From: Rhizobium sp. Leaf371
GTDB taxonomy: Bacteria > Pseudomonadota > Alphaproteobacteria > Rhizobiales > Rhizobiaceae
Direction of reading: 5' to 3'
Assembly (NCBI RefSeq): GCF_001424045.1
Contig: NZ_LMQB01000001.1
Span: 966,083-1,030,082, forward strand
DNA: 64,000 bases
Shown here: one piece after another, positions 8,862 to 64,000 of the stretch
How positions within the stretch are numbered: position 1 is the stretch's first letter
How the letters are laid out: each line of letters starts with the position of its first letter
The notes under the pieces: model-generated
The model's database searches: none
Told to the model about the DNA's origin: nothing
Seen by the model: the letters and a program-made list of their open reading frames with translations, nothing else
Translations under genes and position numbers: made by a program

Positions 8862-9948
8862 GCTTGAAAAACGACCGAAGGTCTCGCTTCTCTATGCCTT
8901 CCTCTCTCCGGTGATCGCACTGGGCCTGACGATCGTCGCCGGGGCGATCATGTTCGTGATTCTCGGCAAGGATCCCGGCCTCGCGCTGTACAGCTTCTTC
9001 ATCGAGCCGCTGACCGAGGTCTGGTCGCTGCACGAACTTGCCATCAAGGCAGCACCGCTGATCCTCATCGCTGTCGGCCTTTCGGTCTGCTACCGGTCCA
9101 ACAACTGGAATATCGGCGCAGAGGGCCAGTTCATCATGGGAGCCGTGGCGGGCTCCATCATTCCCGTCGTGTTCCACGAATGGCATTCGGCTCTCGTCCT
9201 GCCCCTGATGCTCGTCATGGGCATGATCGGCGGTGCGCTCTATGCCGCGATCCCGGCCTTTCTCAAGGCGCGCATGAACACGAACGAGATTCTGACGAGC
9301 CTGATGCTCGTCTATGTCGCACAACTGTTTCTCGATTGGCTCGTGCGGGGCCCGTGGCGCGACCCCGGCGGGTTCAATTTTCCCGTGACGCGCGAATTCG
9401 CGCCGGAAGCGATCCTGCCGGAGATGCTCGCCTCGGGCCGGGCGAATTACGGCTTCGCCTTCGCCATCGTCGCGGCGCTCGCCATCTGGTTCATGATGCG
9501 CTTCACGCTCAAGGGCTTCGAAATCACGGTGCTCGGCCAGTCGGAGCGGGCAGGGCGCTTCGCCGGCTTCTCTTCGCGCCGGATGATCTGGTTCTCGATG
9601 CTGCTTTCGGGCGCCTTTGCCGGGCTCGCCGGCATTTCGGAAGTCTCCGGCGCCATCGGCAAGCTGCAGCCGGTGATCTCGCCCGGCTACGGGTTCACCG
9701 CCATCATCGTCGCCTTTCTCGGCCGGTTGAACCCGCTGGCAATCATCGTTGCCGGGCTCGTTCTCGGCCTCACCTATCTTGGCGGCGAGGCGGCGCAGAT
9801 CTCTCTCAGCCTGTCCGACAAGGTCGTGCGGGTGTTCCAGGGCCTGTTGCTGTTCTTCGTGCTCTCCTGCGACACGCTGATTCAGTATCGTGTGAGGATC
9901 GTCTGGCGGCAGATGACAGGTGGATCGTCGGCCGAGGGAGCGCACTGA
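8851..9948 (+). CDS. ABC importer permease 1 (BPD_transp_2 family)
   Basis: The 365-residue integral membrane subunit has about nine or ten hydrophobic segments. It carries family blocks such as SNNWNIGAEGQFIMGAVAGS and GYGFTAIIVAFLGRLNPLAI, which match permeases of BMP-type nucleoside importers. With its partner permease it forms the membrane channel. The start at 8851 lies inside the 3' end of the ATPase gene, suggesting translational coupling. Confidence 0.9.
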   Translation: MRIELEKRPKVSLLYAFLSPVIALGLTIVAGAIMFVILGKDPGLALYSFFIEPLTEVWSLHELAIKAAPLILIAVGLSVCYRSNNWNIGAEGQFIMGAVAGSIIPVVFHEWHSALVLPLMLVMGMIGGALYAAIPAFLKARMNTNEILTSLMLVYVAQLFLDWLVRGPWRDPGGFNFPVTREFAPEAILPEMLASGRANYGFAFAIVAALAIWFMMRFTLKGFEITVLGQSERAGRFAGFSSRRMIWFSMLLSGAFAGLAGISEVSGAIGKLQPVISPGYGFTAIIVAFLGRLNPLAIIVAGLVLGLTYLGGEAAQISLSLSDKVVRVFQGLLLFFVLSCDTLIQYRVRIVWRQMTGGSSAEGAH

Positions 9949-55767: not shown

Positions 55768-55828
55768 TGGCGGAAGAGGTGGGATTCGAACCCACGGTAC
55801 GGTCTCCCGCACGCCGGTTTTCAAGACC
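55768..55828 (-). other. attL: 3' fragment of tRNA-Ser (UGA)
   Basis: On the minus strand the sequence reads from the anticodon loop CTTGAAA (UGA) through the variable arm, T-arm and acceptor to an encoded CCA at 55770-55768. The 5' half of a tRNA-Ser is missing: after 55828 the match stops and unrelated DNA follows. This is what integration into the 3' part of a tRNA gene leaves at one junction. Confidence 0.85.
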
Positions 55829-55911
55829 TGTGGGATTTCGTTGATTAACTTGCATATTTCGGCATTTTCTGTGTAATGTTGCAGCATTGTTGCAGAAAAT
55901 GAGAAATCTCG

Positions 55912-57006
55912 ATGGCAAGCATCACGAAACGCGCAGGCAAATGGACGGTGACGGCACGGCTCCCGGACACGTTTAAGGGGCCATGCAGGTCCCGCTCGAT
56001 CTCAAATACCTTTAAGAACAAGCGTGATGCGCAAGTATGGATCGACGCGACGGAATCTGCAATGCGGCTCGGGACGTGGAAAGACCCTCGGCTCGATCCA
56101 AAACCAGGTGCATCGAAAGGATACTTCGATCGCCCCTTCAGAGACGCTATTGCGGATTACAGGGACAAGGTGACACCAAGGAAAAAAGGGGCCGCTCAGG
56201 AGTCGGATATGTTGAACATGTTGGCTCGCGAGGACTTTGCGGCAAAGACTGTTCGCGAGTTGAGCTCTGATGATTTCGTCGAATACCGCGACAGGCGGCT
56301 TGAGGAGTTCTCCGAAAGTACGGTGCGAAACAACCTCAACACCCTCAGCTCAATCTATCGGTGGCTCATTCATGAAAAGAAGGTGCCAGCTGAAAATCCG
56401 ATAGCCGCAATGCGGAATTTTCAGTTCGGAATACCTCAGCCCAAAGGTCACCGCGAGAGACGACTTACCCCGGGCGAGGAAGAACGCATTTGGGAGCAGC
56501 TGAAGGGGGAGACGCCTCAAAACAGGCAATGGGCTTGCCTGTTCCCGCTGTTGCTGGACACAGGAATGCGCGTAGGCGAAGCCGATAGCATCTTGGCAGA
56601 ATGGGTCAACGCATCCAAAGGCTTCATTAGAATACCGAAAACGAAAAATGGTGAAGCTCGGAATGTCGCCCTATCTGACCGAGCATATGAGGCTCTCGCT
56701 GTCCTTGCGGAAGGTGAGCCCGACGACGCCAAGGTGTTTAAGTTTACCAAAGACTCGCGGGACCACGAGTGGCAGAAGATAAGGGAGGCTGCTGGCTGTC
56801 CCGACCTTCGCATCCACGACCTGAGGCACGAGGCACTCAGTCGGATGTCTGCGAGGCGCGTTGATCTGAAAACGTTGATGCGGCAGTCTGGACACAAAAC
56901 CGTAGCAGTTCTCATGAAGTACATTAACCCCACCGATGAGGAACATCGCGAGAATCTATTCGGCAAACCCGAGAGTAGCGGAAGCCAAGACCACGCAACC
57001 GCATAA
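55912..57006 (+). CDS. Tyrosine-type site-specific integrase
   Basis: The 364-residue recombinase has a SAM-like/core-binding region (about 75-165) and a catalytic domain with the set R220 (DTGMRVGEADS), HxxR at 302-305 (IHDLRHEALSRM), H328 (LMRQSGHKT) and the nucleophile Y337 (VLMKYINP). It lies 84 bp from the tRNA-Ser fragment, so it probably integrated the island. The short N-terminal Arg/Lys-rich region resembles arm-binding domains. Confidence 0.92.
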   Translation: MASITKRAGKWTVTARLPDTFKGPCRSRSISNTFKNKRDAQVWIDATESAMRLGTWKDPRLDPKPGASKGYFDRPFRDAIADYRDKVTPRKKGAAQESDMLNMLAREDFAAKTVRELSSDDFVEYRDRRLEEFSESTVRNNLNTLSSIYRWLIHEKKVPAENPIAAMRNFQFGIPQPKGHRERRLTPGEEERIWEQLKGETPQNRQWACLFPLLLDTGMRVGEADSILAEWVNASKGFIRIPKTKNGEARNVALSDRAYEALAVLAEGEPDDAKVFKFTKDSRDHEWQKIREAAGCPDLRIHDLRHEALSRMSARRVDLKTLMRQSGHKTVAVLMKYINPTDEEHRENLFGKPESSGSQDHATA

Positions 57007-57037: not shown

Positions 57038-58225
57038 TCAACGCCGTTGAATCGGCTCCAACATTGCCCCAGCAGGATTGTATTCATACCCCGTGATCGA
57101 CCCATCCTTTACCCGCGCGACCACCTCATCAATGATCTGCAACGGCACAAGATACCATTCCTTCGGCTTCACTGGATTGCCGAAACGGTCCTGAATCGTC
57201 AGATCGAGTCGGGCAGGCGAGAGCACCCGATGGAGAACGTTCTCGAGCCTGCTGCGGTTGATGTTGAATAGTTTGTACGTCGCCACAACCTCAACGTCAG
57301 CGAGCAGGTATGTGGATTCCAAGGCGGCATGCGCGATCCGTGTTTCGACGTTACCGCCTGTCACGCCGACCTTGTGGATCAAGTCCCGGTGGGCGGCGAC
57401 TTCAGGATGATTAGACTTGCTCCGTAACACATAGATCGTGCCGCTCTCCAGGTCATCATTCTCGACAGCCCCACCGAACAATGGCCCGGCATTGGGGTCG
57501 GTGATTCGACGTCCGGCGTCGTCCTTGTATAGCGCCCGCTGGAATGACCTGAGGAGGAGGTCGCTTTCGGTGCCATTGTCGAAAACCACGCGAAGCCGCC
57601 GATCCAGCCGACCGTAGTCCGTTCTGAATTCTTCGCCCATGTCCGCGACGAATGCAATCTGACCGCCGAGGATAAAGAACTCGCCCTTCTTCACGTCAGC
57701 GTCTTCACCAAACCGCCGGGTCTCGCGGGCGGCCCTGTCGAGGTCATCCTTAACGCGGGTAAACAGCGATTTGAAGAACTCGAAGTCTACGCATGGCGTC
57801 CTATCCGCCACCTCCTCGGCAGCACGGACTTCCGCCCGCGGCTTCACATGGGTGAGGTTTGTAAGGTCCACCTCGCCGACCGGCTCGACGCCCAGTTCGG
57901 CAAGCAGGGCGTCGTCATCGAGGTCTTCATTTTCACCCGTGGATGCTGGGTCGGCTGCCAGCAAGCCGTACCGGTCGAATTCAAGCAACAAGGCGCAGCA
58001 GTCCTCCTGCGCGCGCAGCCTATCGAGTCGCACGGCATAGAGGCGCTCGAAAATATCGCGATCCTCACCGTGCAGAGGCGCACGCCCGTGCTCCTCACGG
58101 AAGCGCACAATGTCTTCGAATCCTGCAATAATCCGCTCGTCGCGGGGCGACCTGGCGTTCTGCTTTTTCGCCTCTGGCGCTGCCCCGAGTTCGGCGAGGA
58201 GGTCGTCGTCTGAAATGTCAACCAT
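57038..58225 (-). CDS. GIY-YIG nuclease, T5orf172 type
   Basis: The 395-residue protein carries a C-terminal GIY-YIG fold: SGTIYVLRS (261-269), HKVGVTG (284-290), Arg296 and Glu328 (RLENVLHRVL). The N-terminus has two copies of an acidic linear motif, DDDLLAELG (7-15) and DDDALLAELG (103-112). Between them a region resembles a helical spacer (DERIIAGFEDIVRFREEHGRAP). GIY-YIG domains cut DNA in restriction and mobile-element proteins. Its start overlaps the helicase stop by 8 bp, so it is the last gene of the operon. Confidence 0.8.
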   Translation of the reverse strand: MVDISDDDLLAELGAAPEAKKQNARSPRDERIIAGFEDIVRFREEHGRAPLHGEDRDIFERLYAVRLDRLRAQEDCCALLLEFDRYGLLAADPASTGENEDLDDDALLAELGVEPVGEVDLTNLTHVKPRAEVRAAEEVADRTPCVDFEFFKSLFTRVKDDLDRAARETRRFGEDADVKKGEFFILGGQIAFVADMGEEFRTDYGRLDRRLRVVFDNGTESDLLLRSFQRALYKDDAGRRITDPNAGPLFGGAVENDDLESGTIYVLRSKSNHPEVAAHRDLIHKVGVTGGNVETRIAHAALESTYLLADVEVVATYKLFNINRSRLENVLHRVLSPARLDLTIQDRFGNPVKPKEWYLVPLQIIDEVVARVKDGSITGYEYNPAGAMLEPIQRR

Positions 58226-60284
58226 TCTTCTGCTGCTCTACGTGGTGCTTGAGAGCGACCACACCTTCTGCCATGCGCTTTTCCCATGCGTCAGCCGACG
58301 TGATGTCCGGAGCGCGGCCACGCTCCTGCATGAACTTCCGAGCCCGTAGGGCAAGGTCTCGGGCCTCTTCGTAGGGAATGCTGATCTTCTTGGAGGCGAT
58401 GACCGCGGCGACCTGCTTCAGGGTCTGTTCGCTCATAGATTTCGCGAGGATCGAATAGGCAGCCTCGAACGGATTGATCCTGTCGATCATATCGATGTCG
58501 AGATTCCGAACGTCCATCGCGAATTTCCGGACCCCGTCGATCAGGGCCGATCCGCCCGTCAATTGCCCGGAGTCTTCCAATTCTGCCGCAACCGCCTTGG
58601 CCTTCTGCGTCAGGTTCAAGGCGGCAATAGCATGCTGCCGAATGGCTTCCTGATCGACGTCACTCAGGTCGGGATAACGATCCTTGACGATCTTGCCCAT
58701 ACGGACCTGGGTCAGCTCCTCAGGCACTGTCTCGTCATCAAATAGGCCTTTCTCAAGCGAAGGCTTGTCTTGAACGAAGGCCGTGATGACCTCGTTGAGG
58801 TCTTCTTGGCAGATGCGCTTGGCTTCATTGCTCTGCGGCGTGACAAGACCATTGATCTCGAAATGGAATTGACCGGTCGCTTCATTGAAGCCGACGTTCG
58901 TCCCCTTGGGATTGTAGCCGCCGTCACCATAGTCGAAGTCAGGCAGAGGGCCGCTGTCTGCATTCTTTGGCGTGAAGTTGAATTTCGGCGCGAGCACCTG
59001 CTCCATCAGGAGGCTGGCAGCGATTGCCTTCAGCGTGTCGTTGACGGCGTCCACAACCGCCTCTTCGCTGGCATCGGGTTCGGCGATCAGGTTGGTGAAC
59101 CGAGCAGACGTCTTGCCCGGCGCGTCACGCGTGGCGCGGCCAATAATCTGGATGATCTCGGTCAAGCTGGCGCGGTAGCCTACTGTCAGCGCATGCTCAC
59201 ACCAAATCCAGTCGAAACCTTCCTTTGCCATACCGAGGGCAATGATGATGTCGACATGATCGCGGTCGTTTTTGTGATTGGGGTCTTTCAAAGCCGAAAC
59301 GACCTTGTCGCGCCGCGCAGGTTCATCGTCGACAAGGTCGGCGACCTTGATAAGACGCCCTTCAGGCAGCCGCACCAGATGGAAGCCGGTGGTGCGGTCT
59401 TCACCCTCCCAGGTGCCGAGCGCGTCCATGATCTCGTTGACCTCTTTCACCTTATCCTTCGTGCTCTCCCGAGAGTTGACGTTAGGGATATGCACGATGG
59501 TCTTGAAAGCGGGGTCGAGGACTTTGGTGATCGCGTCGAGATATCGGCCGCTATAGAAGAAATAGCCGATATCCAGAGACTTCAGATGGTCGTAGCCATT
59601 GAGCTGTTCGTAATATGTGTAGGTGACGGTCACGAACTTAGACTCGTCCTGAGGAGCAAGTACGGCCTCGGCATCGCCACGAAAGTAAGACCCCGTCATA
59701 GCGACGAGGTGGACGCGGTCGCGAGACAGAAACTGTCCTAGCTGTGCGCCGAGCTTGTTATCCGGATTCGAACTGACATGATGGAACTCGTCGACGGCGA
59801 TAAGGCAGTCATCGAATGCTTCGATACCGAGCTCTTCAACTGAGAAGCGGAACGTCGCGTGCGTACAGACCAGAACCCGATCCTCGCTCTCAAGGAACTG
59901 CCCGACAGCCTTAACCTTAGACTTTGCGACGGACGTATTCTCGATGCCCGCGACGTTGCATAGGTTCCATTGTGGCTTCACCGTCCAGTCTGCCCAGAAC
60001 CCATACCGCGACAGTGGCTCATCGGCAAAGCTGCCGCCGATCGATCGTTCTGGAACCACGATGATGGCCTTACGGACATTCTGATTATGAAGCTTGTCGA
60101 GGGCGATGAACATCAGCGCCCGGGATTTGCCAGAGGCGGGCGGTGACTTGATCAACAGGTATTGCTCGCCGCGGTGCTCATAGGCACGCTCCTGCATGGT
60201 GCGCATACCAAGTTCGTTGGCCTTGGTCGAAGCACCACTGCCTGCTGTGCGCATGGAAACTGAGGGGATGGTCTTTCCGGTCAT
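58218..60284 (-). CDS. SF2 DEAD/DEAH-like helicase of the island operon
   Basis: The 688-residue protein has a Walker A SPPASGKS (47-54), a DEFH box (165-168) instead of DEAH/DEAD, AMTGSY at motif III, the motif V-like ALGMAKEGFDW (349-359) and motif VI QIIGRATR (379-386). The C-terminal 300 residues lack recognised domains. Helicases of this kind act with restriction nucleases. The start at 60284 overlaps the upstream stop (ATGA) behind AAGGAA; a longer frame is rejected. Confidence 0.85.
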   Translation of the reverse strand: MTGKTIPSVSMRTAGSGASTKANELGMRTMQERAYEHRGEQYLLIKSPPASGKSRALMFIALDKLHNQNVRKAIIVVPERSIGGSFADEPLSRYGFWADWTVKPQWNLCNVAGIENTSVAKSKVKAVGQFLESEDRVLVCTHATFRFSVEELGIEAFDDCLIAVDEFHHVSSNPDNKLGAQLGQFLSRDRVHLVAMTGSYFRGDAEAVLAPQDESKFVTVTYTYYEQLNGYDHLKSLDIGYFFYSGRYLDAITKVLDPAFKTIVHIPNVNSRESTKDKVKEVNEIMDALGTWEGEDRTTGFHLVRLPEGRLIKVADLVDDEPARRDKVVSALKDPNHKNDRDHVDIIIALGMAKEGFDWIWCEHALTVGYRASLTEIIQIIGRATRDAPGKTSARFTNLIAEPDASEEAVVDAVNDTLKAIAASLLMEQVLAPKFNFTPKNADSGPLPDFDYGDGGYNPKGTNVGFNEATGQFHFEINGLVTPQSNEAKRICQEDLNEVITAFVQDKPSLEKGLFDDETVPEELTQVRMGKIVKDRYPDLSDVDQEAIRQHAIAALNLTQKAKAVAAELEDSGQLTGGSALIDGVRKFAMDVRNLDIDMIDRINPFEAAYSILAKSMSEQTLKQVAAVIASKKISIPYEEARDLALRARKFMQERGRAPDITSADAWEKRMAEGVVALKHHVEQQKNG

Positions 60285-61462
60285 TTCACAAATTCCTTGG
60301 CGGCTGTGTTTCCGACTTCCCATGCTTTGGTGACTTGGTCGGGGTGAGCGAGGAAGAATTCACCGCCGAGTGATCGGGAGCGTGGAGCTTCACACAGTAC
60401 GGTTTGCATCGCCTTCTCGCCTGCTAATGCGTGGTCGGATGTTGGATACGCATCAATGCCTTGATCCGCCCCAGAGTGGAGAAGCTCCCATCCAAAGCTG
60501 AAGTTCGGAAAGGCGGAATTCAATGTGTCGCGTCGCGTCTTCGGGCTGCAGGAAAAGCCGGCTTTGACGATGATATGCCCGTTGGCCTGCTTCCCGAGGA
60601 AAGCGTCTGCGTCCCCCCGGAGCTTTAGAATATAGAGGTGCTTAGGTCCCTCGGCCTCACGCACGGTGAAACCACTTTGCGAAACAGGGCCCGCCTTACT
60701 CGGCGCGAGGATATGACGAGCGCCAGCTGGTGCCGACTGGATCACCGCAGACGCACCAAAAACCGCAACCTCTTGGAGGTCCAGTTTCAGGATGTTTTCA
60801 GCCTCTCTCGGGGTCAGTCTTTCACCTCGGGAGCCAATGTGCTGCCACGCCTCTGTGGCAGTGGCGTCGGGCGCGAACTCCCTGACCGGCATCCGGGTCT
60901 CCGGCGTTACGCGCCATGCGCGCTCAACCTTTACAGCATAGTCCCATTTGCCCTTGCTATCCGGATTGGCTTCCTTCTTCCGCCATTCCTCCGGGGACAT
61001 AAACTGCTTCGCATGACCCGTCACGTGCGAGCATTGCAAGACCCCAATGACGTTTCCGCGCTCTGCTTCTGAAGCTTTACTTGCACCATAGATGACGACC
61101 AAAACACCGGGCGCACTGTTCTTGATGAAGCTTTGTCGAGCGCTCTCAAGTGTGAAGCCTAGAAAGCCCCAGTTCCACGGACCGAAACCGTAAAAGCTCG
61201 TCAGCCACACGTTTGGCGGTTTTGAACGGATCGCCTGCATTGGAAACATGAGGTCGGATGTTCGGGCATGCGCATTCTCAAAAGCCCGAACCGAACCATA
61301 CGCTTCAACCACCCGCGACTGCTGGGCAGGCATCATCTTCTCTTTGCGTTCGGGCCAGCCGTGAACCTCGAACATGTTGCGATAACTGCCGTAGTACTCA
61401 CGGGCAACACGGGCGATCGCCTTCGCATCTCCACCAGGCTTATAGCTCCTTTCGGCATTCAC
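60281..61462 (-). CDS. PUA/EVE-like plus GIY-YIG-like protein
   Basis: The 393-residue protein has no clear named family. Residues about 84-235 (NVWLTSFYGFGPWNWGFLGF, PGVLVVIYG, NVIGVLQCS, KWDYAVKVERAWR, AENILKLDLQEVAVFG) follow the PUA/EVE-like pattern of modified-base readers. Residues about 275-370 (HLYILKL, IIVKAGFSCSPKTRRD, Glu349 and GGEFFLAHPDQVTKAW) follow the T5orf172/GIY-YIG pattern. The usual aromatic GIY position is kept, but the YIG half is VKAGFS. Both readings are inferences from short motifs. Its start overlaps the methyltransferase stop as ATGA. Confidence 0.65.
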   Translation of the reverse strand: MNAERSYKPGGDAKAIARVAREYYGSYRNMFEVHGWPERKEKMMPAQQSRVVEAYGSVRAFENAHARTSDLMFPMQAIRSKPPNVWLTSFYGFGPWNWGFLGFTLESARQSFIKNSAPGVLVVIYGASKASEAERGNVIGVLQCSHVTGHAKQFMSPEEWRKKEANPDSKGKWDYAVKVERAWRVTPETRMPVREFAPDATATEAWQHIGSRGERLTPREAENILKLDLQEVAVFGASAVIQSAPAGARHILAPSKAGPVSQSGFTVREAEGPKHLYILKLRGDADAFLGKQANGHIIVKAGFSCSPKTRRDTLNSAFPNFSFGWELLHSGADQGIDAYPTSDHALAGEKAMQTVLCEAPRSRSLGGEFFLAHPDQVTKAWEVGNTAAKEFVK

Positions 61463-64000
61463 TTGCGCACCGCCTTTTGCTTGACGCCGTCCGATGCAGT
61501 CATTTTGGTGTAAAGCTCAAAGAGCTTTTCTAGGCGTTCGGTGTCATTCCGGAAGCGCCGTCCGATGTAGATGCGCTCCAAAGTCTCATCATTGCGCTGA
61601 TGGGCAGCGCGTAGATTTTCAGGCATGGAATCAGGGTCATAAAGGCCTGCGATAGTGGCTGGGTAATGGGCCTCGCGGGCAAGTAGGATTTCCTCGCCGC
61701 AATTGGTGAGGTCAAACTTGTTCTTCTCAGTCAACGGGGGAACAGGGAATGTATTCCAGCCGAGTGTGTTTGAATACCTAAGATCGGTTTTCAGCTTCCC
61801 GCAAACAGTCCCAATCCAGACCATATGAAGTCGAGACGACAAGACAGCCAGATTCCATATTGGCGCATCGTACAGCGCGTACGCCTGATTTGTTGTACCT
61901 GTCCGTCCTCCGAAAAGCGCTGTGGGAAGAAACTCTCTTGTCTCAGAACAGATAGTTGGCGCGATAATTGTCATTTCGCGAGCAAGATTTCGATCTCTAA
62001 ATTGGTGAGGTCGACCGACGAGCGCGTTGTAGCTCGGGTCAGGACTCTCCTGACGAGTCTTTCGCACCAAATCTATACGCTCACTCACGAATCCGTTCGA
62101 TAAAGCAAATTCGAGATCGTCATCATCGATCCATAGGCAGTAGCGCTGCAGGCCACGGATAAATTCCTGAGCGCCATAAAGTGGGATAATCAGGCGTTCG
62201 AAGCGCGGATTATCTTTAATTAGAGCGTCCCGCTCGTTACGATTTAGTGTAAGAAAATTTCCATCTCCGGGAAGATTCCCGTAGTTCATCTTAGATAACG
62301 CAGAAATGGGACTGCTGCGCATTTCGACCACTTTAGCCTCAGAAGGCAAAAGATACGGATTTATCGTTTTAACCTCGTGACGCTGTTCGTCATCAAAAAT
62401 ATATTTACGAACGCGAGAGCGGCCGATGCCTAATATAACGCACGTCACACCTGCGTTGGCAGAAGCGTTGTTACTCCAAGGGAACGAACGATGAGCGAAA
62501 TTAATTTCTAATCCCATTGAGAAAAGATGAGGCCAATAGATCGGAATTTGGGTACCTTGGGCAACGGAATTTGTCGTTACAAAAGCGAATTCTCCAGAAT
62601 TCCTTTTTATGTAATCTGCAGCTTTTTCAACCCAACAAAAAACGTAGTCGAGCGACGCGCTGGACTTTAAATCTTTTAATACCGTCTTGATCTCGCTTTT
62701 TTGCTCGGCTGACTGATTTCTGCGACCAAGATATGGCGGGTTACCGCAGATATACGTTTCACCACCTTCATTCTCAAAATCGATTTGCGCCTGATCAAGA
62801 GGCGTTTGGAATAAGTCATCCCCGTGTAGCTTCACGCCTGTGCCGGTCGGCGGACAGACGCTGAACCAGTCTAGGCGCAGCGCATTGCCACAGACGATCC
62901 AATTCTCAGCATCTAGCGGCAAGAACTCGATAAGTGCTTCCTTCTGCCCACGATAGAGAACATCGCACTGATATTCGGCAATTATCAAAGCGAGGCGGGC
63001 AATCTCAGCCGGAAAGTCGCGCAGTTCGATCCCCCGGAAATTCGTGAGGGGTATCTCTGTTCGTCGGTCGGGCTCGCCGCGGCGCTTGTTAATCTCCGCC
63101 TCTATCTCCCGCATCTGCTTATAAGCGATGACCAGAAAATTGCCGGAGCCGCAGGCTGGATCGAAGACTCTGATCCGGGACATTCGGTTCTTGAGGTTCA
63201 GCAGTTTGCGCGCGTTATCACCGGCATCCGCCAGCTTCTCGCGTAAATCGTCGAGAAAGAGAGGATTCAAAACCTTCAGGATATTCGGCACGCTGGTGTA
63301 GTGCATGCCGAGTGCCCCACGCTCGTCATCGTCTGCAACGGCCTGAATCATAGACCCGAAGATATCGGGGTTTATGAGTTTCCAGTTCAGGCCGCCGATA
63401 TGCAGCAAATAGGACCTGGCAATTTTGCTGAATCTTGGGACCTCAGTGCTTCCAGAAAAGAGGCCACCATTGACGTAAGGAAAACCGTTCGCCCACCTTG
63501 GAAGGTTTGCCTGAGTTCGATCCGCAATCTTCGTATTCATGGCCCTGAAGAGGGTTCCGATGACCTCATGTGTATTGGAAGAGTCGCGGTCGCTCATCTG
63601 ATCGATAGTGGACGTAAACACACCCTCACCATTGAAAATGTCTGTATCCTCGGCAAAGAAACAGAAGATCAGTCGCGCCATAAAATGGTTCATGTCGGGG
63701 CGACGTGCTGCGGCCGCCCACTCGGGGTTATCCTTTAGGAGCTCCACATAGAGCTTGTTCAAACGTCCCGTGGCCCGAATGTCGAATGAGCTCTCGCGGA
63801 TTTGCTTGACCGTAGTGATACCCGCCAAAGGAAGGAAGAACCCGAAGTGATCCGGGAACTGCGGGTAGTCGCAAACGACCGTCTCCCCGCTCGTCAGGTC
63901 TTCGGCCTCAAAGGCGACGCCATCGGTTGCGAGAATGAACTTCGCCTTGTTGGATGCGGTCTTCGGGCTGGTGCGTAGCGCCACAAGCGTTTCGCCTACC
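61459..64000 (-). CDS. MmeI/YeeA-like adenine DNA methyltransferase, 5' end missing
   Basis: At least 846 residues are visible; the frame is open to the window end and 63984 is an internal GTG, so the N-terminus lies outside. From that codon, FDPACGSGNFL is at 274-284 (SAM binding) and NPPY at 415-418 (adenine catalysis), followed by GRRNQSAEQKSEIK as in MmeI-like enzymes. A region before (NHFMARLIFCFFAEDTDIF, about 99-117) is the family's spacer. The C-terminal part should recognise DNA. MmeI-type proteins often carry an N-terminal PD-(D/E)XK nuclease domain; whether this one does cannot be seen. Confidence 0.85.
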   Translation of the reverse strand, partial: VGETLVALRTSPKTASNKAKFILATDGVAFEAEDLTSGETVVCDYPQFPDHFGFFLPLAGITTVKQIRESSFDIRATGRLNKLYVELLKDNPEWAAAARRPDMNHFMARLIFCFFAEDTDIFNGEGVFTSTIDQMSDRDSSNTHEVIGTLFRAMNTKIADRTQANLPRWANGFPYVNGGLFSGSTEVPRFSKIARSYLLHIGGLNWKLINPDIFGSMIQAVADDDERGALGMHYTSVPNILKVLNPLFLDDLREKLADAGDNARKLLNLKNRMSRIRVFDPACGSGNFLVIAYKQMREIEAEINKRRGEPDRRTEIPLTNFRGIELRDFPAEIARLALIIAEYQCDVLYRGQKEALIEFLPLDAENWIVCGNALRLDWFSVCPPTGTGVKLHGDDLFQTPLDQAQIDFENEGGETYICGNPPYLGRRNQSAEQKSEIKTVLKDLKSSASLDYVFCWVEKAADYIKRNSGEFAFVTTNSVAQGTQIPIYWPHLFSMGLEINFAHRSFPWSNNASANAGVTCVILGIGRSRVRKYIFDDEQRHEVKTINPYLLPSEAKVVEMRSSPISALSKMNYGNLPGDGNFLTLNRNERDALIKDNPRFERLIIPLYGAQEFIRGLQRYCLWIDDDDLEFALSNGFVSERIDLVRKTRQESPDPSYNALVGRPHQFRDRNLAREMTIIAPTICSETREFLPTALFGGRTGTTNQAYALYDAPIWNLAVLSSRLHMVWIGTVCGKLKTDLRYSNTLGWNTFPVPPLTEKNKFDLTNCGEEILLAREAHYPATIAGLYDPDSMPENLRAAHQRNDETLERIYIGRRFRNDTERLEKLFELYTKMTASDGVKQKAVRK

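What the first reader, a model, noticed from the sequence alone, without database searches (positions are those of the whole stretch)
57038..64000. Four-gene methyltransferase-EVE/GIY-YIG-helicase-GIY-YIG operon: candidate defence system
Four adjacent minus-strand genes overlap by 4, 4 and 8 bp, so they are one translation-coupled unit. They encode an MmeI/YeeA-like adenine methyltransferase, a PUA/EVE-like plus GIY-YIG-like protein, an SF2 helicase with DEFH, and a T5orf172-type GIY-YIG nuclease. They sit in a tRNA-integrated island next to an integrase. Restriction-modification units usually pair a methyltransferase with one nuclease, and MmeI-type enzymes may act alone. I recall no named system (BREX, DISARM, classical types I-III) with this set. 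Inference: a modification-guided restriction system with two nucleases.
Basis: partly seen in the sequence, partly recalled or inferred. Interest (0 to 1): 0.82.

Follow-up and report, generated by a model that had tools for sequence, protein, structure and literature searches.

The report
Restriction operon with swappable cargo slot
Three of the four genes form a known but little-understood bacterial DNA-restriction operon, and the fourth, a probable cutter of modified DNA, occupies a slot inside it where other bacteria carry different defence or toxin genes, which suggests that one core machine is equipped with exchangeable second weapons.

Summary
The four coupled genes are real. Three are the published DnmA-YeeB-YeeC core: an MmeI-like adenine methyltransferase (MT) without the fused nuclease motif, an SF2 helicase (HEL) and a T5orf172 GIY-YIG protein (T5). 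The fourth, EG, reads as a PUA/EVE-like plus GIY-YIG fusion (domain evidence individually weak). MT-EG-HEL recurs in that order in 16 of 35 EG loci, but EG is in only 2 of 18 HEL loci of a class sample. There the MT|HEL junction is empty in 8, filled in 9, undetermined in 1; fillings include EG, BrnT, RhuM, PDDEXK_4, YhcG and zeta-like proteins. Some cargo families are PADLOC defence candidates. The recognition domain of MT varies independently of HEL, while HEL and T5 vary together; EG tracks neither closely. Best reading: a type I-like RM core on a 14.3-kb tRNA-Ser island with an exchangeable second-line effector, here probably a modification-dependent nuclease. The core is known; ten literature searches did not show the slot. 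No function was tested.

The parts
55768..55828 (.). att-like repeat: copy of the tRNA-Ser(TGA) 3' part; partner copy at window-equivalent 70102 (L002:18102-18191)
   Evidence: 34 bp exact, then a short mismatched stretch and 21 matching bp
55912..57006 (+). tyrosine integrase of the island
   Evidence: Phage_integrase E 4e-22
57038..58225 (-). T5: YeeC-like protein with C-terminal T5orf172 GIY-YIG domain
   Evidence: Pfam T5orf172 3e-10, MUG113 5e-12; Y265, K285, G287, R296, E328 invariant in 16 of 16
58218..60284 (-). HEL: YeeB-like SF2 helicase (ORF also open from an ATG at 60323)
   Evidence: DEAD and ResIII; GKS, DEFH and QIIGRATRD motifs invariant in 16 of 16
60281..61462 (-). EG: helical N-terminal module, PUA/EVE-like domain, GIY-YIG domain; cargo of the MT|HEL slot
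   Evidence: A3/A4 alignments, AF2 model pLDDT 84.6, Foldseek, Pfam on relatives
61459..64000 (-). MT: MmeI/DnmA-like N6-adenine methyltransferase; gene continues to about 64209 outside the window
   Evidence: Five MmeI Pfam domains on the full 916 aa; no [DE]xK column in 4 or more of 16 within residues 1-110

Best explanation
The operon is a type I-like restriction-modification core (MT-HEL-T5) carrying an exchangeable second-line effector (EG). MT reads a short site with its recognition domain (TRD) and marks host adenines. When it meets unmarked foreign DNA it recruits HEL, which moves on DNA with ATP, and T5, which cuts. MT's former nuclease domain may serve as the docking face. EG is a modification-dependent (type IV-like) nuclease: its EVE-like domain binds a modified base and its GIY-YIG domain cuts, so phages that escape the core by base modification are met by a second enzyme in the same operon. 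The MT|HEL junction is a slot in which other genomes carry toxins, other nucleases or candidate defence genes. Shown by sequence: gene set, motifs, slot, cargo diversity, separate TRD and EG histories, mobile island. Inferred: complex formation, cleavage, what EG binds, and antiphage activity.
For: Core identity: Pfam, MmeI 5hr4 aligned from residue 89 onward, published dnmA-yeeB-yeeC. Specificity carried by MT: in 16 loci TRD mean identity is 0.38 against 0.73 for HEL; in 13 non-redundant loci TRD does not track HEL (Mantel r 0.22, p 0.12) while HEL-T5 (r 0.72) and HEL-MT N-terminus (r 0.68) do, p 0.0005 each. HEL and T5 persist where MT is in two pieces (L087, L092) or has no match (L086) among 13 plasmid regions, as expected if they cut only through MT. 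Slot: class sample 8 empty, 9 filled, 1 undetermined of 18 loci; phylum sample 11 empty, 4 filled between MT and HEL, 4 not decidable of 19 new loci; 13 plasmid regions 5 empty, 7 filled, 1 without MT. Cargo includes PDC-S02, PDC-S26, PDC-S67, BrnT, RhuM, Schlafen AlbA_2 and zeta-like proteins. A same-family genome matches the window at 81% DNA identity across T5 and HEL, the match ending at 60276 next to the HEL/EG junction, and has an empty slot. EG: GIY-YIG residues invariant in 37 aligned sequences; the first eight Foldseek hits are PUA-superfamily proteins (some so named from recall). Island with integrase and relaxase; neighbouring Mrr gene.
Against: In B. subtilis, deletions of dnmA, yeeB or yeeC did not change plaquing of three phages, and deletion of dnmA did not change plasmid uptake, so the core is not active everywhere. 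Foldseek E-values for EG are weak (best 0.031, none at or below 0.001; shell proteins appear from rank 9; no clear GIY-YIG hit). EVE Pfam hits are marginal (6 of 34 members, best E 0.021) and a profile search of solved chains gave nothing significant (an EVE-family protein by recall at E 0.41, below a ferrochelatase at 0.28). The base that EG recognises is unknown. The docking idea is not specific: MT's catalytic domain also co-varies with HEL (r 0.58, p 0.001). EG is not a randomly drawn cargo: core-linked EGs cluster on the tree (0 of 500 shuffles as low). The Mantel tests rest on 11 to 16 chosen loci, and with near-duplicates kept EG tracked T5 (r 0.34, p 0.016) and HEL (r 0.26, p 0.04). 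Variable TRDs are also expected in ordinary MmeI enzymes.
Confidence: 0.6

Rival explanations
1. One reading: an obligate four-gene system in which EG is a required subunit and both nucleases cut together under guidance of methylation.
For: MT-EG-HEL in this order and on one strand in 16 of 35 EG loci; core-linked EGs cluster on the tree.
Against: EG in only 2 of 18 class-sample core loci; other genes fill the same slot; EG does not track HEL in 11 non-redundant loci (r 0.05, p 0.31); EG lies after T5 in L017; L016 and L031 EGs beside other methylase genes nest among core EGs, and one clade of core EGs is rejected (AU p 5e-6).
Confidence: 0.1
2. A relic: MT is a working orphan methyltransferase and HEL, T5 and EG no longer restrict, as proposed for B. 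subtilis.
For: PMC9973331 and PMC7261158 report no phage or uptake phenotype for the B. subtilis locus. Some plasmid copies have a broken or missing MT.
Against: All four frames of the window are intact; helicase and GIY-YIG motifs invariant in 16 of 16; TRD diversified; HEL relatives in 259 plasmid records. PMC9973331 reports that deletion of Vibrio crassostreae dnmA and yeeB homologues raised sensitivity to some phages and not to others.
Confidence: 0.15
3. The slot genes, EG included, are selfish or stabilising riders (addiction modules, homing-type GIY-YIG genes) that use the operon for expression and do not help defence.
For: Toxin or TA-like genes occur in the slot (L052 BrnT and L060 zeta-like; L096 as annotated; L063 by appearance only) and overlap the MT start (L088, L090, L097). 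T5orf172 genes were surveyed as phage homing endonucleases in PMC10448857 (search listing only).
Against: EG joins its nuclease to a PUA-like domain; several cargo families are PADLOC defence candidates; EG also sits beside unrelated RM genes, e.g. L031 methylase-ResIII and L032 Type ISP.
Confidence: 0.13

Closest known systems
B. subtilis dnmA(yeeA)-yeeB-yeeC (PMC7261158, PMC9973331; passages read)
   Same: MmeI-like MTase without fused nuclease motif, then SF2 helicase, then T5orf172/GIY-YIG protein, in this order
   Different: EG inserted between MTase and helicase; the passages read describe no variable slot or separate TRD history; the B. subtilis locus was found inactive against the phages tested
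MmeI type IIL enzymes
   Same: MTase, TRD, spacer and C-terminal domains
   Different: MmeI has a PD-ExK nuclease in its N-terminus (PMC7261158 passage); here no [DE]xK column is conserved and cutting is presumed to be by separate genes
EVE-nuclease fusions (type IV-like; Bell et al. 2020, PMC7641849; passages read)
   Same: EVE-like domain fused to a GIY-YIG nuclease, a class named in that paper
   Different: Here placed inside a DnmA-type operon; MmeI does not occur in that paper's main text
BREX with auxiliary or backup nucleases, and BrxU (PMC12839542 section 35 part 1; PMC12707154 passages)
   Same: Methylation-based core with embedded, varying effectors; a type IV enzyme beside a modification-protected system
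   Different: No PglZ or BrxC hit was shown among the operon proteins scanned; only the MTase core resembles PglX
PrrC inside the EcoprrI type I locus (PMC12707154, passage)
   Same: Second-line effector gene embedded in an RM operon
   Different: PrrC is an anticodon nuclease triggered by inhibition of the enzyme; EG has a GIY-YIG domain and its trigger is unknown

Membership tests
DnmA-YeeB-YeeC type I-like RM | MmeI-like MTase, helicase, T5orf172 gene adjacent in this order | tested here: met
   in the window EG separates MT from HEL
DnmA-YeeB-YeeC type I-like RM | MTase lacks the N-terminal PD-ExK nuclease motif | tested here: met
   no [DE]xK column in 4 or more of 16 within residues 1-110; phmmer match to MmeI starts at residue 89
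DnmA-YeeB-YeeC type I-like RM | restriction that depends on MTase, helicase and nuclease together | not testable with these tools
   needs experiment; proposal cited through PMC7261158
Type IIL MmeI | nuclease and MTase in one chain | tested here: not met
   MmeI_N domain matched, catalytic motif not found
Type IV EVE-nuclease fusion | EVE/PUA-like domain fused to a nuclease domain | tested here: inconclusive
   AF2 pLDDT 84.6 and invariant GIY-YIG residues, Foldseek top hits PUA-like but E at least 0.03; Pfam T5orf172 in 11 and EVE in 6 of 34 members, all weak. Probable, not proved
Type IV EVE-nuclease fusion | cuts DNA only when it is modified | not testable with these tools
   needs experiment
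BREX | PglZ and BrxC present | tested here: inconclusive
   none among hits shown for the four operon proteins in PADLOC and NCBIfam (MT's PADLOC list was cut at 25 of 46); Mrr and relaxase scanned by Pfam; other island ORFs not scanned
Classical type I RM | separate HsdM, HsdS and HsdR | tested here: not met
   recognition domain is within MT; helicase and nuclease domains are on separate genes

The most novel reading that the evidence does not exclude
The DnmA-type operon is a plug-in platform: a conserved helicase-nuclease engine takes its target from an exchangeable methyltransferase recognition domain, and the junction between methyltransferase and helicase is a docking bay for second-line effectors controlled by, or guarding, the core. 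In the window's variant the effector is an EVE-GIY-YIG nuclease that catches modified phage DNA.
Probability: 0.4. Interest if true: 0.77.

Novelty: new variant of a known kind. Interest (0 to 1): 0.6.

Why it matters
If right, a widespread but neglected RM family works with interchangeable parts: one engine, exchangeable target readers and exchangeable second weapons. It also offers a search rule for new antiphage genes: read what stands between the MmeI-like methyltransferase and the YeeB helicase. By my count 16 kinds of gene were seen there with MT on the other side, several with no Pfam family, and the window's EG has no PADLOC or NCBIfam hit. Whether the lack of an insert bears on the silence of the B. 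subtilis copy is only a thought; PMC9973331 itself points to missing C-terminal stretches in its YeeB and YeeC.

Tried and rejected
Considered and dropped: BREX, DISARM or MADS membership of MT (PADLOC and NCBIfam matches are partial or far below cut-off); MT as a self-sufficient type IIL enzyme (motif not found); L028's EG as a broken gene (its tblastn match ran upstream through stops; the EG ORF 8949-9932 itself is open, 327 aa); conservation of the upstream Mrr gene (among the loci held only a weak hit in L044, but many loci do not reach upstream of MT). A six-row EG alignment could not be used for the collection scan. My first count of plasmid regions took MT as absent where it was not annotated (H10, H12, H20); one search showed MT in two pieces in H10 and H12, so these two slots count as empty and only H20 has no MT match.

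The VIA-align library was not available. Morgan et al. 2009 was not held, so its type I-like proposal is cited through PMC7261158, and the Vibrio crassostreae result through PMC9973331. L062, L069 and L085 slots could not be judged, and in L072 and L073 MT was not within the 1.5 kb fetched. PMC10448857, PMC12923530 and PMC11090510 were seen only in a search listing. Rows left out: L028 and L046 from the EG alignments and tree; L021, L025 and L088 from the non-redundant Mantel set; G204 from the helicase count.
Full report
1. What is in the sequence. Four open minus-strand genes occupy 57038 to the window end. MT starts outside the window; taken whole it has 916 aa. MT and EG overlap by GTGA, EG and HEL by ATGA (if HEL starts at 60284), HEL and T5 by 8 bp. 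The 8-bp HEL/T5 overlap recurs in annotated plasmid copies, for example L089, L091 and L093. 132 bp upstream of MT lies an Mrr-type restriction gene on the same strand (Mrr_cat 2e-35), and further on a MobA-like relaxase gene. A 34-bp exact copy of the tRNA-Ser(TGA) 3' end lies at 55768-55801, beside the integrase at 55912-57006; the complete tRNA lies at window-equivalent 70102-70191. So the operon sits on an island of about 14.3 kb with its own integrase and a relaxase gene.

2. What the proteins are. MT matches five MmeI Pfam domains over its full length. MmeI's solved structure 5hr4 aligns only from residue 89 of MT, and among 16 homologues no column in residues 1-110 shows [DE]xK in four or more members, so the fused nuclease motif appears lost. 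HEL has invariant GKS, DEFH and QIIGRATRD motifs in 16 of 16, and T5 has invariant Y265, K285, G287, R296 and E328 in a T5orf172/MUG113 domain. EG has no Pfam hit of its own. In an alignment of 37 sequences (window, 33 of the 35 scan loci, and L006, L008, L009) the GIY-YIG positions Y277, K300, G302, R310, E349 and E368 are invariant. Of 34 members scanned singly, 11 hit T5orf172 (best E 6e-4) and 6 hit EVE (best E 0.021), all weakly. A profile search of solved chains gave nothing significant; a UPF0310 protein that I recall as EVE family came at E 0.41, below a ferrochelatase. The AF2 model (mean pLDDT 84.6) gives as its first eight Foldseek hits an McrB N-terminal domain (E 0.031, probability 0.96), a YTH domain, two proteins that I recall as EVE proteins (1zce, 2ar1), three TRIP4 entries (ASCH) and 5y7d, which I recall as ASCH. 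From rank 9 unrelated shell proteins appear, no hit is at or below E 0.001, and no GIY-YIG structure ranks high. I take EG as PUA/EVE-like plus GIY-YIG with moderate confidence.

3. The core is known. MT-HEL-T5 has the order of B. subtilis dnmA-yeeB-yeeC. Passages read in PMC7261158 and PMC9973331 state that DnmA makes m6A at GACGAG, that such MmeI homologues lack the nuclease motif and are flanked by genes like yeeB and yeeC, that a type I-like system had been suggested, that deletions in B. subtilis did not change plaquing of three phages, that loss of dnmA did not change plasmid uptake, and that deletion of Vibrio crassostreae homologues raised sensitivity to some phages. PMC9973331 also notes that an uncharacterised neighbour might be another member of the locus in some bacteria.

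4. EG is a recurring but optional member. A scan of genome contigs with an EG profile gave 35 loci. In 17 of 35 EG lies with the core: between MT and HEL in 16 (with a further gene in the slot in L015, L019 and L028) and after T5 in L017. T5 is seen in 14 of the 17; the contigs of the other three end before it. The other 18 have no match to HEL or T5 in the stretch held. Of those looked at, L031 EG precedes a methylase and a ResIII helicase, L032 EG follows a Type ISP protein, L016 has a methylase upstream and a reverse-transcriptase gene downstream, and L045 has an Mrr gene next to EG. In a class sample of 385 genomes EG matched 9, three of them only in the N-terminal module. A helicase search of the same sample matched 18 genomes; I dropped one weak partial match (G204), leaving 18 loci in 17 genomes. 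EG is in 2 of these 18.

5. The MT|HEL junction is a slot. In the same 18 loci it is empty in 8 and filled in 9; in L062 MT was not within the fetched flank. Fillings: EG (window), EG plus a small gene pair that looks like a toxin-antitoxin pair (no family search made), BrnT, RhuM, PDDEXK_4, YhcG, a zeta-like protein with a 66-aa ORF, and two proteins without Pfam hit. A phylum sample of 398 genomes gave 23 with HEL, 19 of them new loci: 11 empty, 4 filled between MT and HEL (PDDEXK_4, RhuM, PDC-S67, a 205-aa unknown), 2 with an HTH-M78 gene before HEL but MT not reached, 1 with a 270-bp gap, 1 at a contig end. Of 259 plasmid records with HEL I fetched 13 regions: 5 empty (in L087 and L092 MT is in two pieces), 7 filled, and L086 with a YhcG-like gene before HEL but no MT match. 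The filled ones include a YhcG nuclease, a Schlafen AlbA_2 protein with a partner, an annotated RelE/ParE set and unknowns. PADLOC lists PDC-S02, PDC-S26 and PDC-S67, candidate defence genes, among the cargo. Separate loci share cargo families: RhuM twice, PDDEXK_4 twice, YhcG three times (L086 included), PDC-S67 twice.

6. Parts have separate histories. For 16 loci with complete core genes (window, 12 EG loci, 3 plasmids) the TRD averages 0.38 identity, HEL 0.73, T5 0.61, MT's first 110 residues 0.67, its catalytic domain 0.63 and its C-terminus 0.80. After removal of three near-duplicates, Mantel tests give HEL-T5 r 0.72 and HEL-MT N-terminus r 0.68 (p 0.0005 each) and HEL-MT catalytic domain r 0.58 (p 0.001), but TRD-HEL r 0.22 (p 0.12) and TRD-T5 r 0.26 (p 0.06). 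EG-HEL is r 0.05 (p 0.31) on 11 loci, against HEL-T5 r 0.67 on the same loci. With duplicates kept, EG-T5 was r 0.34 (p 0.016) and EG-HEL r 0.26 (p 0.04) (all). In a genome of the same family the DNA matches the window at 81% over T5 and HEL, the match ends at 60276 next to the HEL/EG junction, and only patches of 72 and 75% follow in MT; its slot is empty. On an EG tree of 34 rows core-linked EGs cluster (0 of 500 shuffles as low) yet are not one clade: L016 pairs with L013 (97/99) and L031 with the Stakelama pair (98/96), and the AU test rejects one core clade (p 5e-6). The program warned of long branches (L041, L027, L019).

7. Mechanism. Inference from sections 2 to 6: MT is both modification and specificity subunit. 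HEL and T5 can be kept while the TRD changes, and they persist in plasmids with a broken or missing MT, which would be hard if T5 cut on its own; but such copies may also simply be dead. HEL's co-variation with MT's N-terminal domain makes that domain a candidate docking face, though the catalytic domain co-varies too. EG would add a modification-dependent layer, much as BrxU restricts phages with modified cytosines beside BREX (PMC12707154 passage; PMC12839542 section 35 part 1). None of these steps has been tested.

8. Novelty. EVE fusions with GIY-YIG nucleases are named by Bell et al. 2020 (PMC7641849 passages). Embedded auxiliary effectors are described for BREX and PrrC for type I RM. 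In ten literature searches I found no paper describing the MT|HEL slot, its cargo range or the separate TRD history for the DnmA family. That is absence from an open-access library, mostly judged from listings and passages.

Noticed in passing
L002:12342-13316 - (window-equivalent about 64342-65316): Mrr-type nuclease gene 132 bp upstream of MT on the same strand; in L045 an Mrr-type gene, and in L044 a gene with a weak Mrr match, also follow an EG gene directly.
   Followed up: partly
L088, L090, L097 (plasmids), upstream of MT: Genes annotated as HigA antitoxin or VapC toxin overlap the MT start by 4 bp, so the 5' edge of the operon may be a second cargo site.
   Followed up: no
L028:8856-8948: Sequence similar to part of EG's N-terminal module, with stop codons, lies just upstream of a shorter, open EG gene, as if the module had been lost there.
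   Followed up: no
L032, L033, L034, L042: EG relatives outside the core carry a different N-terminal domain (pattern TYQQVGEAVGWGHPTGRGLG or close) that looks to me like the DNA-binding part of alkyltransferase-like proteins (recalled; no Pfam hit for L032 and L042).
   Followed up: no
L016: EG 59% identical to the window's lies between an N6/N4 methylase gene and a reverse-transcriptase gene.
   Followed up: partly
L087 and L092 (plasmids): MT is in two pieces (in L092 around an IS5 transposase gene) while HEL and T5 remain.
   Followed up: partly
window 55878-55897 and window-equivalent 70003-70022: A 20-bp direct repeat just inside both island ends, possibly an integrase arm site.
   Followed up: no
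L095 (Nitrobacter plasmid): Empty-slot core flanked by a SAVED-domain gene and an AAA ATPase-McrC pair: a larger defence cluster.
   Followed up: no
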